Of a DNA stretch of 64,000 nt, positions 3,746 to 45,735 are shown piece by piece. The stretch's first letter is position 1. Each line of letters starts with the position of its first letter. The notes beneath the pieces were generated by a model that saw nothing but the letters and a program-made list of their open reading frames with translations, was not told where the DNA came from and made no database searches. Made by a program: the position numbers and the translations under genes. The DNA comes from Nymphaea colorata (Eukaryota; Streptophyta; Magnoliopsida; Nymphaeales; Nymphaeaceae). The stretch covers positions 32,213,706 through 32,277,705 of the forward strand of contig NC_045139.1 in the NCBI RefSeq assembly GCF_008831285.2, given 5' to 3'.

Positions 3746-5240
3746 AAGAGAGAGAGAAAGAGAGAGAGGAATTTACATAATTAGAAATAAAAATGAAAAA
3801 AAAAACTAAGAATGAGGTCGAAATTATTATCACTATTATTTATTTATTTATTTATTTGTGCAGGGTAAATGTCACGTCAGATGGCTTTCTCGTAGGCACG
3901 GCTGATTCGCTTGCGGACGAATCAGACAAAGAAGGCCATCTTGTAAACATCACCGCGTATCGGTGATACGGCAGTTTTGATTCTCAAACTGAGACGCATT
4001 GGAATATCGGTCGCGATGCATTGGCGCGTATCGATCGACACCAATGGCATAAAAAACGGGATTACCTTTTAGTTCTGTGGATTTAACAACTAAAGTTGTT
4101 TTTAACGAACCGAACCGAGACGGTACTGGGCAACACTTACAAGGACGATACGCCCTCAAAATATTCTGCTGCTCGAGAAAAAAAAAGGAAAAAAAAAGCA
4201 GAAAATTTTAAAAATAAAAACAAAAGAGAAAATGGGCATGCAGCTATTTATTTATTTTTTTAATCCATTATTAAAAGAGATTGGATTTACCGGAAGACAA
4301 AAATTAAGGGAGAGAATGAACGACGCTTGCGGTACCGTACAGCATTCTAACTTCAGCGTAATACAATATCATTTACCGTTAGGTTTGCACGCTGACCCTT
4401 GTCCTAATCAAACACATCAACTATTTCAAACATATATATCTAGAGAGAGAAACAAAGCTACATATTAAAGCAAATTAGGCCAATTAAAAAAATTATTTGT
4501 TCCTGTAATTGCTTTTTTCATTTTTGTAACAATTTATTTTTTATTTCTTTATACTAATTAGTATTTTACCAAAAATTTTAAAAAATCACATATATATATA
4601 TATAAAAGAGAAAAAAAGCAAAATATAGCCGTTGGATGGTTTGTTGTAGTTGGTGCCAAGGTATCACTCACGTGGATGCCTTGTAAACGGGGCCTTTCAT
4701 TCTCTTTTTCTTTTTTCCAGTCTAGTGAGAGAAAGAAATCGAGATATTTTCACGTTTTTAGAGGAAGAGAGAGACCAGCTCCTGTCTTTTTTTCTATTTT
4801 TCTGGACCTTATTTCATTGCCACTCCTTCTCTTACAAGTCATTTCTGATTTCCCTGTTTTATATTTTGAAATTCTGGAATTTTACTTTTTCTTTTTAAAC
4901 ATATTAAGCAAAAAATAGCACTTTCACCTTTATTTCTCGAACTAAACCACTCATTTATAGCAATACTTATTTACATTTTAAATATTTTGCTTTCTCTCTC
5001 CTCCTTCACCCACGCTTCCATTTTCTCTTTCTCTCTCTAAAAAGGATTTAAAAAATCGAAATATCTGAAAAAAAAAGATAAATGAAAAAAGACGACCAGC
5101 TGCGCTGATAAAATCCCTCGCTGCACAGACGCAGAAGAAGCACGCGGACACACACACTCTCTCTCTACTCTCTCCTCCTCCAACGTTCTCCTCCTCTTCC
5201 TCGTCTTCCCCACCAGGCCGTCGTCTTTCGGAGACCGACG

Positions 5241-25621: not shown

Positions 25622-26141
25622 TCATGGTTTGGAGTTGGTATAGATATAATCCTCAGAATCAAACAAGTTATCATCAGCAACACCTTCACTGCCTTGGTCA
25701 CATCCTTTTTCTTTGCCCTTCGAATCCTTACACTCCACTGCCTAAAGCACCAGAACATGAATCAAGACAAGAACCCAAGACAGATGACGATCTAACCGTG
25801 AAAGAGGTTAAAAGTTCCAACTTGATTCACAGGATTAATTAGGACTAACATGAACAAAGTTCAAAAACACAACATGTTGGAATAACTTGCCTCATGTTGA
25901 TGATGATGATCATGAGCTTCCGAACTCTTTTGGTGCACAGATAAGTTGGTGGTATCTGAGTTTCCAAAGATAAGAACCACAAAAATAAGAATAACTCAGC
26001 ACATTCCAATCAAGAAAAGGAATGAAAGTGAAGCAAAGAAACAAACTTACTCATTAAGAGCAATCTTGAAGCCAAACACCCATTTACAAAGAGTAACAGA
26101 AGGATCAGAAGACAGAACAACTGGTTGGGAGCCCTCATCAT
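25622..26141 (-). CDS. Phytosulfokine-type peptide precursor with YIYTN core
   Basis: Secreted precursor of a sulfated growth peptide; in known PSKs the tyrosines are sulfated by TPST, the pentapeptide is released by subtilases and it signals through PSKR receptors. Three exons: 26141-26051, 25955-25891 and 25741-25622, encoding 91 residues. Phase holds at both junctions. A clear signal peptide (MMRAPNQLF then CLLILLLLFVNGCLAS) is followed by a variable His-rich stretch, two cysteines (EC, GC), an acidic segment and DSEDYIYTNSKP at the C terminus. The acidic residue before the first Tyr matches the sulfation site. The fifth core residue is Asn, not the usual Gln. Intron 1 is 95 bp with a gtaagt donor; intron 2 (149 bp) starts with GC in an ideal AG/GCAAGT context. 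The Arg-Arg-Leu block seen in many PSK precursors is missing. A second in-frame ATG lies at codon 2. Confidence 0.86.
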
Positions 26142-26186
26142 TACCACTTCCAATGTTTATGGTCTGCTCTCATACACCTCAGTTCT

Positions 26187-26195
26187 GTATATATA
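26187..26195 (-). promoter_or_regulatory. TATA box of the phytosulfokine-type gene
   Basis: Minus-strand CTATATATAC lies about 46 bases before the first ATG of the peptide gene, which would give a transcript start near 26158 and a very short leader. A second TATA-like word (catatatact, about 26219-26228) could serve a longer leader. Confidence 0.55.
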
Positions 26196-35531: not shown

Positions 35532-38500
35532 ATGGGTGCATGCTTGAGTTCTAGAATGGGTAAGCTAGGGGAGGGAGACGAAGGAGACGTGGTTGCTCTC
35601 TGCAAAGAGAGGAAGCGTCTCATAAAGGCCACCATCGAGCGCCGCTACGCCTTTGCTGACGCCCACTACAGATATATGCTTTCCCTGAAGGCAATGGCGG
35701 ACGCGTGCAGGCTCTTTGCCTCCGCGCACACCTCTCCCGCGCCTTTGTTCATAGCACTCCCTGAGCCCGTTTCATCCTCACCGCCGGACAGCCCTCCTGC
35801 TGCACCTCGCCTCTCTCTTCCTCGCTGTTGTTCTTCTTCTTCCTCCTCATTGTCCTCGCCTTCCCCGTGTTCGTCTTCACCGGACATAAGCGCCCCGGTG
35901 ACAGCAGAGGAAGCGCAGACCGTGTTTCAACCCCCACCACCGTCGACGTTTGGCTGGGATTTCTTCTTTAACCCGTTCGACGATTTTGGGGCCAAGGGAG
36001 GGAGGATGAGCCGAAGCTCGGACGAGGATTTGAGGATGGTGAGGGAAGAAGAGGGCATTCCAGAGCTCGAGGAAGTCGACGACGACAGTGATAGCGGCGA
36101 TGGTGATGCTGTTGCTGATGCTCACACCTCTGCTGATGATGAAGTTGTTGTTGTTGATGGTGGTGGCGACGGCGGTGGCAGCGATGGAGAGGATGGATGT
36201 GGTGGAAACGAAATAAGCGACGATGAGAGCGTAGCAAAGATGGTAGCGATTGGAAAGGTTGAAGGAGAGAAGGAGCAGAGTCAGCAGCAGAGAGGACTAA
36301 CGGTGATCGACACACCGGCAAGGGAAAGGGACCTTCTTGATGCGTTAAAGGATGTTGAGGACCATTTCATCAGAGCATATGATTCAGGAAAGGAAGTTTG
36401 CAGAATGCTGGAGGCAAACAGGTTCCACCTCTGCTCTGGTTTGGAGGAAATCAAAGGTGAGCAGGCTGCTTTTGCTTTTATGCACTTACCTTTTCACTTT
36501 CTCTTTGCCTTTTCATCTGCTTCATTTTGTTTATCTTGAGTTGATGGATTGGGGGAGCGTGAAGAGATGATTGTTTTACTGGAGACATGATTTTCAGCAC
36601 TTGGTCCCAATGATGATCCATGGTTGATCTCTCAGAAAACCTGATGTTGTCCTATTATGATATTCTCTGTGGGACCCACTTACTTAGAACTCCCCCCTCT
36701 TGGGGCCTGTATGATTCATCATACTGGTTCGAGTCGGTGAAAACGTTGATGTAGGATATTTTACTGTGGACTGGTGGATGAAACGATGTTTCTGCTCGAC
36801 TACCATCTGGTTGTTGTAAACCTGCATACAAGAAGTAGAGAGGCAATCAACGGTCGCTGTGTTACGCTTGTTTTCCTTCTCTTCTGGGGTTTTCTGTTTT
36901 CTGCAACTGTTTGAGGAACTGGTGGAGCTGCCACGAGCAGAAACTGTGTTTTGACTAGCATAGCCAACAAGCCATTATTTACTTTTAATCCAATTATATG
37001 TGTCAGAGTGCGTTCTATTAACAATCAAGCATAAGTATGCTAAAAAATTTCATTGATACTCTGTTCAAATGATGCCATATTATGTCTAGTTTCAGTAGTT
37101 TTTCTACATTGGTTGCCATATTGATTACAGTAAGGATTATTTGTTATCTTATACTCCTGTGTGCGGGTACAGTTATCTGGTGATAACTGGGTTAACTGGA
37201 TTTCTTGTGGTGCTTGACTGCAACACACACTTATTCTTTCTTTCCACCTGTAAAATGTCCGAAAAGAATAGAGAAACTAACCTACAAACTGTGGAATAAG
37301 CTCTAGGGTAGCTGCTGCATTGCTGCACCACTCCAACACACTGATGAGTCATAGAACTTTTCAGCTTATTTATGCTTTAGGTGAAATTAGTACTGCAGGC
37401 TAGCATGCATATGCAGATAGTTCAGTGCTTCAAGGGTTCTGGATAACTTGTGTGATGCTAGCATGGCAACAGCAAATTTTATTTGAAGTGCATTCATATT
37501 GGTCCATGTCCAATTAGGCCTGCACATTTGTTTCATTTTTTAAGTATATTGTATTTGTTACTTGGATGATTATATTTTACCTGATATCCAAATATCAAAT
37601 TTAAAACTGCATAGCTACTATTTTTTCTCGCTTTCTGGCTTTCTTATCACCTTATCATGTTTATGACCTCAACAAAGGGACTGATAAAAGAAGAATGAGA
37701 TGAATTAAGTTTTAGGTTGTCCGCTTGAATCCTAAACTGCAATTTTTTCAGGCAGGTTTTGCTCCAATTTCAATAGGGATGAAGGTTGTTTTAAACTAGA
37801 TATGTTTCACCATTTTCTCCCCGTAACCTTAGTTGCCGACAAAATTCATAGAGAGATTCTGAATAATTGATGCCAGAAAATGGCTCCTGTTTAGACAGTT
37901 CTTTAAAATTCTTCATATTTCTAGGACATGTTTCTGCCTTGACAGTGTGATTCATTCTCCAGATGCTCTTTCTGTATGGTAGTTCTTATATCATTTTGTT
38001 TGCAGTATGTTCTCTTTGAATTACAAACTAAATGTGCATAAAATTTGCTGATTGAAAATGTCAAAAAACTGAAGGCAACAAAAATTTAGTCATCCTTGGT
38101 AGGTCAATATATAGATACAAATAAATGTATCTTCAAATGTCATTTGATGATATAATCTGTTAGCATGCATATCTCAAAGTTATATTTGGTTCCAAACTCA
38201 GCTTGATTCATGTTGAGCCCAAACAGCGGACTACCAATATCATGATTTACAAAAGCTGACCAAGGAATTTTGTTGCCACCTTTTGGTTTCATTACGTAAG
38301 TTTCACTTGTTGATAGGTGAGCAGTACTTTCTGATTTCCCCATTATTGCAAGTTTGGATCTTCATAAGAGAAGTTTGTACTTCCCAAACCATTGAAAAGG
38401 TAGAAGAAAAGAAGTTGCAGGTGTATTGAACAGTACTGCATTTGTGAATTACATTATGTTCCATTCGGCCAGTATGATTTTATTATGTTCTCATCCGATT

Positions 38501-40029
38501 GCAGAGAGCTCCTCGAAAATCATCCATGCAATAACATGGCATCGTTCCTCTTCCTCATCCCAATGCTCATCATCACGTCGTAGTTTTCTCTCATCCACTG
38601 ATTTTGACAGCACCTGGAAAAGTTTCAGCAATGATCTTTTTGAGGAGTGTGGGATGGTATCAGGAAGCCATTCATTAACACTAGACAGGTTGTTTGCTTG
38701 GGAAAAGAAATTGTATGATGAAGTGAAGGTAATCCATGCTTTCCCATCTCTTAAGGGTTGGTGTTGGCATTTTAATAACTGGGCCAATCGCTACATACTA
38801 TTCATATTTGACATAAAAGAAGTTTGTTATCACGAAGAATATCTGATCATCCTTCTAGCTACATGTGCAAATCTTGATTCTTATGTATTCCATTCTAGGC
38901 TGGTGATCAAACAAGAAGGATCTATGAGCGCAAGCGTTTGCAGCTGAGCAATCAGGAAGCTAGAGGAGATGATTTACAATCTGTAGACAAAACTAGGGCT
39001 GCCGTCAAAGATCTTTATACAAGAATCTTGGTTGCCATACGTGCTGCTGAGTCCATATCAATAAGGATTCATAAATTAAGAGATGAGGAGTTGCAACCTC
39101 AGATTGCTGAGCTACTAGAAGGGTAACACTCATACTGTATCCTAAATTATTTGTTTATATGGTGACGATCTAATTGTTCTCTTTGCAGGCTGATGAACTG
39201 CTGGAAGATAATGCTTGAATCACATGACACTCAGAATCAAATAATGTTTGAAGTGAAATCTTTCACAAGCTCTGCAGCTGGAAAGTTTTGTGGTGATTCT
39301 CATCGTCATGCAACCCTTCAGCTGGAGAATGAACTCCAAAACTGGCGATTATGCTTTAATGAGTGGATTGGTACCCAGAGGACATATGTTGAAGCTCTCG
39401 GTGGTTGGCTGTCTAAATTCATCATCCCTGAAGCTGAATTTTGCTCCAGTGAAACACCCTTCCCTTCATATAGAGGTGGTGGTCCTCCATTAAACATGAT
39501 GTGCCGGAAATGGCTAGCTTCATTTGATAGCCTTCCTCACAGGGCCGTCTCTTATTCCATCAAAAGTTTCTGCAGGGATGTTCGAACTCTGTGGGCACAA
39601 CAGGGAGAGGAACAAAAGCTGAAACGTAAGGTTGAAGGCCTTGCTAAAGAACTTGACAGACGAGTTTTTGCACTTCAAAAAGTAGAGAAGAGAATACTGG
39701 AATCTAAATTATCTGACTCAAAAGAAGAAGGAGACGTGGGAAACAGAATTGATTACTTGATTGGAAGGAAAGATTTGATAGACATGTTCAGAAGGCGGTT
39801 GGATGTTGAGAAAGAGAAGCATCACAAGTGTATGCAGGAAACAAAGCATGTTACACTTAATGGTTTTCAGACGGGATTGACGTCAGTATTTGAATCATTG
39901 ACAGAGTTTTCAAAAGCGTCTGCTAAAATGTATGAAGAACTTGTGCTGTATTATAAGAAAGCAAACATGGCAAAGGACACCAGTAATCCACGCATTGAAG
40001 GACCAAAGGTTGATGTAGACAGTGGATGA
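35532..40029 (+). CDS. DUF630/DUF632 protein (NRG2-like family)
   Basis: Plant-specific family, sometimes annotated as bZIP-like; a member (NRG2) acts in Arabidopsis nitrate signalling, but the role here is unknown. Four exons: 35532-36456, 38505-38728, 38899-39122 and 39189-40029, encoding 737 residues with consistent phase. The N terminus MGACLSSRMG gives a predicted myristoylated Gly2 next to Cys4, so membrane attachment is likely. DUF630 is residues 1-60 (LCKERKRLIKATIERRYAFADAH). A Ser/Pro-rich and then acidic Asp/Gly/Val-rich linker covers about 75-270. DUF632 runs from about 288 (ERDLLDALKDVEDHFIRAYD) to 650, with LTLDRLFAWEKKLYDEVK and WLSKFI. The C-terminal part is rich in charged heptads, as in coiled coils. 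Intron 1 is 2.0 kb. The long leader has a six-codon upstream frame at 35275-35295. Confidence 0.95.

Positions 40030-43326: not shown

Positions 43327-45735
<2,409 letters not shown>

What the first reader, a model, noticed from the sequence alone, without database searches (positions are those of the whole stretch)
25622..26141. Phytosulfokine-type gene with a YIYTN core instead of YIYTQ
Three small exons join in phase into a 91-residue precursor with a signal peptide, two cysteines and a C-terminal DSEDYIYTNSKP. The exon pattern makes it easy for annotation to miss. Classical phytosulfokine is YIYTQ. From memory, variants with Asn at position five have been described mainly in legumes; if this plant is not a legume, the variant is wider or has arisen independently. 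The precursor also lacks the Arg-Arg-Leu block that many PSK precursors have upstream of the peptide.
Basis: partly seen in the sequence, partly recalled or inferred. Interest (0 to 1): 0.85.

Follow-up and report, generated by a model that had tools for sequence, protein, structure and literature searches.

The report
Legume-type phytosulfokine gene in water lily
A water lily carries two old, selectively preserved genes for a small plant growth hormone (YIYTN) that has been described in print as unique to legumes, so this form of the hormone is older or arose more than once.

Summary
On the minus strand, three exons (26141-26051, 25955-25891, 25741-25622) join in phases 1 and 0 into a 91-residue phytosulfokine (PSK) precursor ending DSEDYIYTNSKP; intron 2 is GC-AG. 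The host is the water lily Nymphaea colorata: a published SSR marker matches exactly on the expected chromosome. The genome holds a second YIYTN gene on C9 with the same intron phases and exon-3 length, four intact-looking YIYTQ genes and one apparently broken copy. Between the YIYTN copies, FDSEDYIYTNS shows 4 synonymous and 0 amino-acid-changing codons, while 21 of 26 upstream codons change the residue, which argues against error and decay. Ks near 1 suggests a duplication about as old as the Nymphaealean genome duplication, but only 1 of 5 neighbours tested supports a duplicated block. Papers seen here call YIYTN (PSK-delta) legume-specific. The Pfam match is weak (E 0.0027, below cut-off) and the C9 copy has none. 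Two PSKR-like receptors are present. Expression, sulfation and activity are untested; ancestral or convergent origin is open.

The parts
26051..26141 (-). Exon 1 (coding part): hydrophobic signal-peptide region, MMRAPNQLFCLLILLLLFVNGCLASRLLLM plus one base
   Evidence: Gene model; hydropathy maximum 3.6; same phase-1 end in the C9 and C11 paralogues
25956..26050 (-). Intron 1, 95 bases, GT-AG, phase 1
   Evidence: intron of 87 bases, phase 1, in the C9 paralogue
25891..25955 (-). Exon 2, 65 bases: NTTNLSVHQKSSEAHDHHHQHE (first codon split), His-rich
   Evidence: the C9 exon 2 has 65 bases to the equivalent GAG
25742..25890 (-). Intron 2, 149 bases, GC-AG (GAG|GCAAGT ... TTTAG), phase 0
25622..25741 (-). 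Exon 3, 120 bases with stop: AVECKDSKGKEKGCDQGSEGVADDNLFDSEDYIYTNSKP
   Evidence: ungapped 39-residue match to the C9 exon 3, 44% identity
25634..25648 (-). Pentapeptide core YIYTN, preceded by Asp at 25649-25651
   Evidence: conserved in C9 with synonymous changes only
26188..26195 (-). TATATATA, possible TATA box 47 bases before the ATG
   Evidence: Read from the sequence; function inferred

Best explanation
The locus is a functional PSK precursor gene of Nymphaea colorata that encodes the PSK-delta-type pentapeptide YIYTN. Shown here: the spliced reading frame, a second YIYTN gene on C9, a substitution pattern that spares the peptide and its immediate flanks, four intact-looking YIYTQ paralogues, and two PSKR-like receptors in the same genome. 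Inferred from what is known of PSK: the precursor enters the secretory pathway, tyrosylprotein sulfotransferase sulfates both tyrosines in the acidic DSED context, subtilases free YIYTN from ...DSED and SKP, and the peptide acts on one or both PSKR-like receptors to promote cell growth beside the YIYTQ form. The two YIYTN genes are most likely an old duplicate pair, possibly from the Nymphaealean whole-genome duplication, so the Asn form was already present in an ancestor of living Nymphaeaceae.
For: Gene model in phase with splice signals. Pfam PSK is the best family, aligned over positions 1-86 of 88, E 0.0027. The two exon 3 sequences find each other genome-wide. Exon 3 of C2 versus C9: Ks 0.93 and Ka 0.03 over the last 13 codons, Ks 1.05 and Ka 0.88 over the first 26; amino-acid-changing codons 1 of 13 against 21 of 26, Fisher p = 1.7e-5 (which corrects a hand count used). 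All six modelled PSK proteins share DYIYT and a terminal Pro. The C11 YIYTQ gene has the same three-exon layout with phases 1 and 0. Receptors at C1:25634952 (57% to AtPSKR1, 389 bits) and C11:6253863 (56%, 378 bits), next best 36%, 121 bits (120 of 1485 first-look candidates scored). Species by an exact marker amplicon of 189 bases with 13 T on C2, published for chromosome 2. Position 5 is tolerant in AtPSKR1: Q5A and Q5K peptides promote roots more than the wild type (PMC11994915, passages; Asn not seen tested there). Legume YIYTN is bioactive (PMC10796568, passages).
Against: No transcript or peptide evidence. Pfam score below the curated cut-off (19.2 against 25), and no match for the C9 copy; the exon-by-exon family search of the genome listed neither YIYTN gene. 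The intron 2 donor is non-canonical (GC), and in C9 the equivalent position reads ATGAGT, so a donor 15 bases on is assumed. The selection test has 39 codons. Only 1 of 5 window neighbours tested has its closest copy near the C9 gene, and that one lies 237 kb away against about 20 kb in the window; its second-best copy is also on C9, 2.1 Mb off. The other four do not.
Confidence: 0.83

Rival explanations
1. The YIYTN genes are decaying PSK copies on the way to pseudogenes, as has been suggested for Arabidopsis PSK6 (YIYTH).
For: Weak or no Pfam match, non-canonical intron 2 donor in C2 and assumed shifted donor in C9, fast change upstream of the peptide. AtPSK6 with YIYTH is described as lowly expressed and possibly a pseudogene (PMC11534595, passages).
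Against: Two copies with Ks about 1 keep open frames and an identical FDSEDYIYTNS with only synonymous changes. The pro-regions of the YIYTQ paralogues differ widely too.
Confidence: 0.1
2. The reading frame and the splicing are chance, and the motif is a random hit.
For: The motif alone is less frequent than its reversed control (38 against 87 sites). No decoy splice control against Pfam was run.
Against: A second locus shares exon 3 length, both intron phases, Cys spacing and 11 consecutive residues, and is the only other hit in the 408-Mb searches.
Confidence: 0.02
3. The gene makes a secreted peptide, but it does not act as a PSK: it may act on another receptor, or as a longer peptide than YIYTN.
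For: Conservation covers FDSEDYIYTNS, wider than the pentapeptide. Both water lily receptors have Ser where AtPSKR1 and DcPSKR1 have Asn at the Asn356 equivalent, which in AtPSKR1 binds the carboxyl end of residue 5.
Against: Acidic residues before the first Tyr are what sulfation and Asp-dependent cleavage would need, so the wider conservation has a simpler reason (inference). The same receptors presumably also serve the YIYTQ peptides of this genome.
Confidence: 0.08

Closest known systems
PSK-delta precursors of legumes (YIYTN; MtPSKdelta, Yu et al. 2022, known here only through passages of PMC10796568 and PMC9662189)
   Same: Identical pentapeptide sequence; Asp before it; precursor size; signal-peptide region
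   Different: Host is a water lily, not a legume; three coding exons rather than the two stated for reported PSK genes; homology to the legume clade not testable here
PSK-alpha precursors (YIYTQ), including four intact-looking paralogues in the same genome
   Same: DYIYT, terminal Pro, two Cys in the pro-region, a phase-0 intron before the Cys-bearing last exon; the C11 paralogue has the same three-exon layout
   Different: Asn instead of Gln at position 5; acidic FDSED where the YIYTQ genes have HTD or HLD; no Arg-Arg block in C2 and C9 (also absent from the L047 YIYTQ gene); wider Cys spacing and a different stretch after the second Cys
Arabidopsis PSK6 (YIYTH)
   Same: A position-5 variant in a non-legume
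   Different: His, one lowly expressed gene thought to be a possible pseudogene (PMC11534595, passages); here Asn in two copies whose peptide is conserved

Membership tests
Phytosulfokine precursor family (PF06404) | Precursor of about 80-120 residues with N-terminal signal peptide | tested here: met
   91 residues; hydropathy maximum 3.6 near the N-terminus. Hydropathy only, no SignalP.
Phytosulfokine precursor family (PF06404) | YIYTx pentapeptide near the C-terminus with Asp at -1 | tested here: met
   DYIYTN, 3 residues before the end
Phytosulfokine precursor family (PF06404) | Sequence match to the PSK profile | tested here: inconclusive
   E 0.0027, 19.2 bits, profile 1-86 of 88, below the gathering score 25; C9 copy no match; a YIYTQ paralogue (L047) also below, 18.2; three other YIYTQ paralogues 53.3, 56.3 and 61.4 bits
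Phytosulfokine precursor family (PF06404) | Tyr sulfation and release of an active pentapeptide | not testable with these tools
   Needs mass spectrometry and bioassay
PSK-delta as described from legumes | Pentapeptide YIYTN | tested here: met
   Codons TAT ATC TAT ACC AAC
PSK-delta as described from legumes | Found only in legumes | tested here: not met
   Host is N. colorata. I therefore do not file it in the legume PSK-delta clade, only as having the same peptide sequence.
PSK-delta as described from legumes | Groups with legume PSK-delta/epsilon precursors in a tree | not testable with these tools
   No plant sequence collection on hand
PSK-delta as described from legumes | Two exons ('like the reported PSK members', PMC9662189) | tested here: not met
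   Three coding exons. Not a sharp criterion: the C11 YIYTQ gene also has three, and tea PSK genes are reported with 2 to 3 exons (PMC11942274 passages, a paper that elsewhere gives other exon counts)

The most novel reading that the evidence does not exclude
YIYTN is an ancient second form of phytosulfokine, already separate from YIYTQ before water lilies split from other flowering plants, kept in water lilies and in legumes (where it was drawn into nodulation) and overlooked or lost elsewhere because its precursors can fall below the PSK profile cut-off.
Probability: 0.25. Interest if true: 0.75.

Novelty: new member of a known kind. Interest (0 to 1): 0.58.

Why it matters
The papers seen here state that YIYTN (PSK-delta) is encoded only by legumes and tie it to nodulation. 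Two conserved YIYTN genes in a water lily show that the form is not confined to legumes and cannot have arisen for nodulation alone, unless it arose twice. A search that applies the PF06404 cut-off would miss both genes, so absence in other plants may partly be a matter of detection. Both water lily receptors carry Ser at the place of AtPSKR1 Asn356, a contact to residue 5, which makes ligand-receptor co-variation testable.

Tried and rejected
Considered and rejected: sequencing or assembly error for Asn (the C9 locus has the same residue; by the standard code CAA or CAG to AAC needs two changes). The other 31 of the 38 motif sites showed no PSK context when I read the frames around all 38; the pattern requires Asp at -1, so the family count is a lower bound. 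A weak PF06404 hit at C1:13397552 (18.5 bits, L004) has no DYxYT motif and was not followed. Synteny: of five window neighbours only the papain-type protease supports a C2-C9 block. DUF632: closest other copy 33% at C9:24.49 Mb; a 34% copy lies at C9:23.28 Mb, 333 kb from the C9 PSK gene, but it is not among the closest. Histidine-phosphatase gene: C11 56%, C9:17.69 Mb 46%. The 61493 gene: no other copy found. Aquaporin: closest other copy on C12. No decoy splice control against Pfam and no structure prediction were run. The Island-domain Pfam search gave four matches, which I take for BRI1-like receptors (label from recall) and not PSKR. Search of solved structures with the end of the precursor gave nothing useful.

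I could not compare with legume PSK-delta precursors or other angiosperms: no plant collection is held. Paper searches: 'phytosulfokine' with 'YIYTN' gave 1 paper; with 'PSK-delta' 7; three of four terms incl. Nymphaea and Amborella 1; with 'Nymphaea' 1, a review whose only Nymphaea mention in the held part of the text concerns CLEL peptides; with 'legume-specific' 9; two of phytosulfokine/PSKdelta/YIYTH/YVYTQ 6. Searches gave wider lists (27 and 37 papers; 25 and 10 listed), one search was too loose to be of use. Of the papers I saw passages of five; no non-legume YIYTN in them. No paper was read whole. An earlier hand count (22 of 26 changed codons, Fisher 5e-6) was wrong; one search gives 21 of 26 and 1.7e-5. 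The mended count did not change my odds.

Full report
What is there. On the minus strand of the window, exon 1 (26141-26051), exon 2 (25955-25891) and exon 3 (25741-25622) join in phases 1 and 0 into MMRAPNQLFCLLILLLLFVNGCLASRLLLM-NTTNLSVHQKSSEAHDHHHQHE-AVECKDSKGKEKGCDQGSEGVADDNLFDSEDYIYTNSKP, 91 residues. Intron 1 is GT-AG (95 bases); intron 2 is GC-AG (149 bases) with the donor GAG|GCAAGT. The window holds no N. Pfam PSK is the best family, aligned over nearly the whole profile (E 0.0027; the only other family listed is at E 0.085), but at 19.2 bits it is below the gathering score of 25, so annotation by that cut-off would pass it by.

Which plant. The window lies in a held genome of 407.8 Mb in 783 contigs. 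Of the contig lengths I saw, nine of C1 to C14 are 12.6 to 44.0 Mb and C156 is 21.6 kb. That fits Nymphaea colorata: 409 Mb, 14 pseudo-chromosomes (PMC7015852, passages); published GC 38.59% (PMC9601493, passage) against 39.1% in the window. I tested it with a published SSR marker: both primers of Ny-2.1, listed for chromosome 2 with a (T)13 core (PMC9601493, passage), match exactly on contig C2, 189 bases end to end, with a run of 13 T between them. The plant is a water lily, not a legume.

The family in this genome. A degenerate pattern for DY[IV]YT[QNHK] gives 38 sites, fewer than the reversed control (87), so the motif alone means nothing. Reading the frame around all 38 sites leaves 7 with PSK context: this locus; C9:22943844, also YIYTN; C3:24540912, C4:9858609, C11:14692, C3:9675886 and C10:7836722, all YIYTQ. 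The C10 copy has an interrupted exon 1 in the frames read and was not modelled. Against Pfam PSK the six score 19.2 (this gene), none (C9), 56.3, 53.3, 61.4 and 18.2 bits. All six end in Pro and share DYIYT.

The second YIYTN gene. C9 encodes ...GMKCDRMMMDIKKCNEGKAAGTDQRAFDSEDYIYTNSRP. It shares intron phases 1 and 0, a 120-base exon 3 without gaps, and 65 bases of exon 2 up to the equivalent GAG. After the GAG the C9 sequence reads ATGAGT, not GT or GC; the in-phase GT used in my model is 15 bases further on, which is an assumption. As genome-wide queries the two exon 3 sequences find only themselves and each other (E 6.4e-4 and 0.0012); these searches did not reach the YIYTQ genes. The C11 YIYTQ gene has the same three-exon layout, so the layout is not confined to the Asn type.

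Selection. Codon by codon, FDSEDYIYTNS differs by four synonymous changes and none that alters a residue; the next codon is Lys/Arg. Upstream, 21 of 26 codons change the residue. Nei-Gojobori values: last 13 codons Ks 0.93, Ka 0.03; first 26 codons Ks 1.05, Ka 0.88. Amino-acid-changing codons are 1 of 13 against 21 of 26, Fisher p 1.7e-5. The numbers are small, but the pattern is what a peptide hormone precursor should show, and it makes Asn as an error very unlikely.

Age. The neighbouring papain-type protease (window 43327-45735; Pfam) has its closest other copy at C9:22707171, 237 kb from the C9 PSK gene, in the same order and relative orientation, with Ks 1.11 over 358 codons (0.88 to 1.69 by piece); its next copy is also on C9, at 25.07 Mb. 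The paranome peak of the Nymphaealean genome duplication is at Ks about 0.9 (PMC7015852, passages), estimated there by another method. Exon 3 of the PSK pair gives Ks 1.01. This fits a pair from that duplication, but four other window neighbours tested (DUF632, histidine phosphatase, the 61493 gene, aquaporin) do not have their closest copy near the C9 gene. So 1 of 5 anchors supports it, and I hold the duplication origin as likely, not shown. In either case YIYTN appears old in this lineage.

Receptors. With an AtPSKR1 fragment as query, the genome gives two clear homologues, C1:25634952 (57%) and C11:6253863 (56%), the next being 36% (120 of 1485 candidates were scored). Over this segment they are 74% identical to each other. 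Of 17 AtPSKR1 residues named as contacts in the passages of PMC11994915 that I saw, 16 could be placed with matching letters (F514 falls on Pro). In both water lily receptors 8 of the 16 are identical to AtPSKR1. Arg310 and Thr335, which hold the carboxyl end of residue 5, are kept, while Asn356, the third, is Ser in both, and Leu409 is Lys in both. This cannot be tied to YIYTN, because the same genome encodes YIYTQ. The same paper reports that Ala and Lys at position 5 promote root growth more than Gln, so Asn is unlikely to abolish activity; I saw no test of Asn there.

How it most likely works. By the established PSK route (inference): secretion, sulfation of both Tyr by TPST in an acidic context, cleavage by subtilases (Asp-dependent for SBT3.8, PMC11534595 passages), and action through PSKR. 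In legumes YIYTN acts redundantly with YIYTQ in nodule organogenesis, and one receptor gene has been identified in Medicago (PMC10796568, passages). The two water lily genes may differ from the YIYTQ genes mainly in where they are expressed; that is untested.

Known or new. PSK-delta (YIYTN) is known and, in the passages I saw, is called legume-specific. [quoted passage not shown] My searches found no paper that reports it in a water lily, but the library lacks most subscription journals; I did not see the original PSK-delta paper and know it only through later ones. So the peptide type is known, and the host and precursor are new to the literature seen: a new member of a known kind, with a distribution that contradicts the printed statement. 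Whether the Asn form is ancestral or arose twice needs other plant genomes, none of which are held here.

Noticed in passing
window 25885-25896 (-), and L043 near 4121-4142: The exon 2 donor is GC in this gene and reads ATGAGT at the equivalent place in the C9 paralogue; both copies seem to have left a GT at the same donor.
   Followed up: partly
window 26141-26173 (-): Upstream reading frame MRADHKHWKW whose stop abuts the start (TAATGATG); the possible TATA box at 26188-26195 would put the transcript start below its ATG, so it may not be transcribed.
   Followed up: no
L048 (C10:7836722 region): A YIYTQ copy similar to the C3 L047 gene, with a stop in exon 1 in the expected frame; probably a pseudogene.
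   Followed up: no
L047 (C3:9675886 region): A YIYTQ gene that scores only 18.2 bits against PF06404 and lacks the Arg-Arg block, so the profile cut-off misses some PSK-alpha genes too.
   Followed up: partly
L067 and L068: Both water lily PSKR homologues share Ser for AtPSKR1 Asn356, Lys for Leu409 and Leu in the island strand (PLF/PLY for PFF).
   Followed up: partly
window 35532-40029 (+): DUF630/DUF632 gene with a Ser/Pro-rich first exon; its best-scoring relative in the genome is only 33% identical over the C-terminal exon.
   Followed up: no
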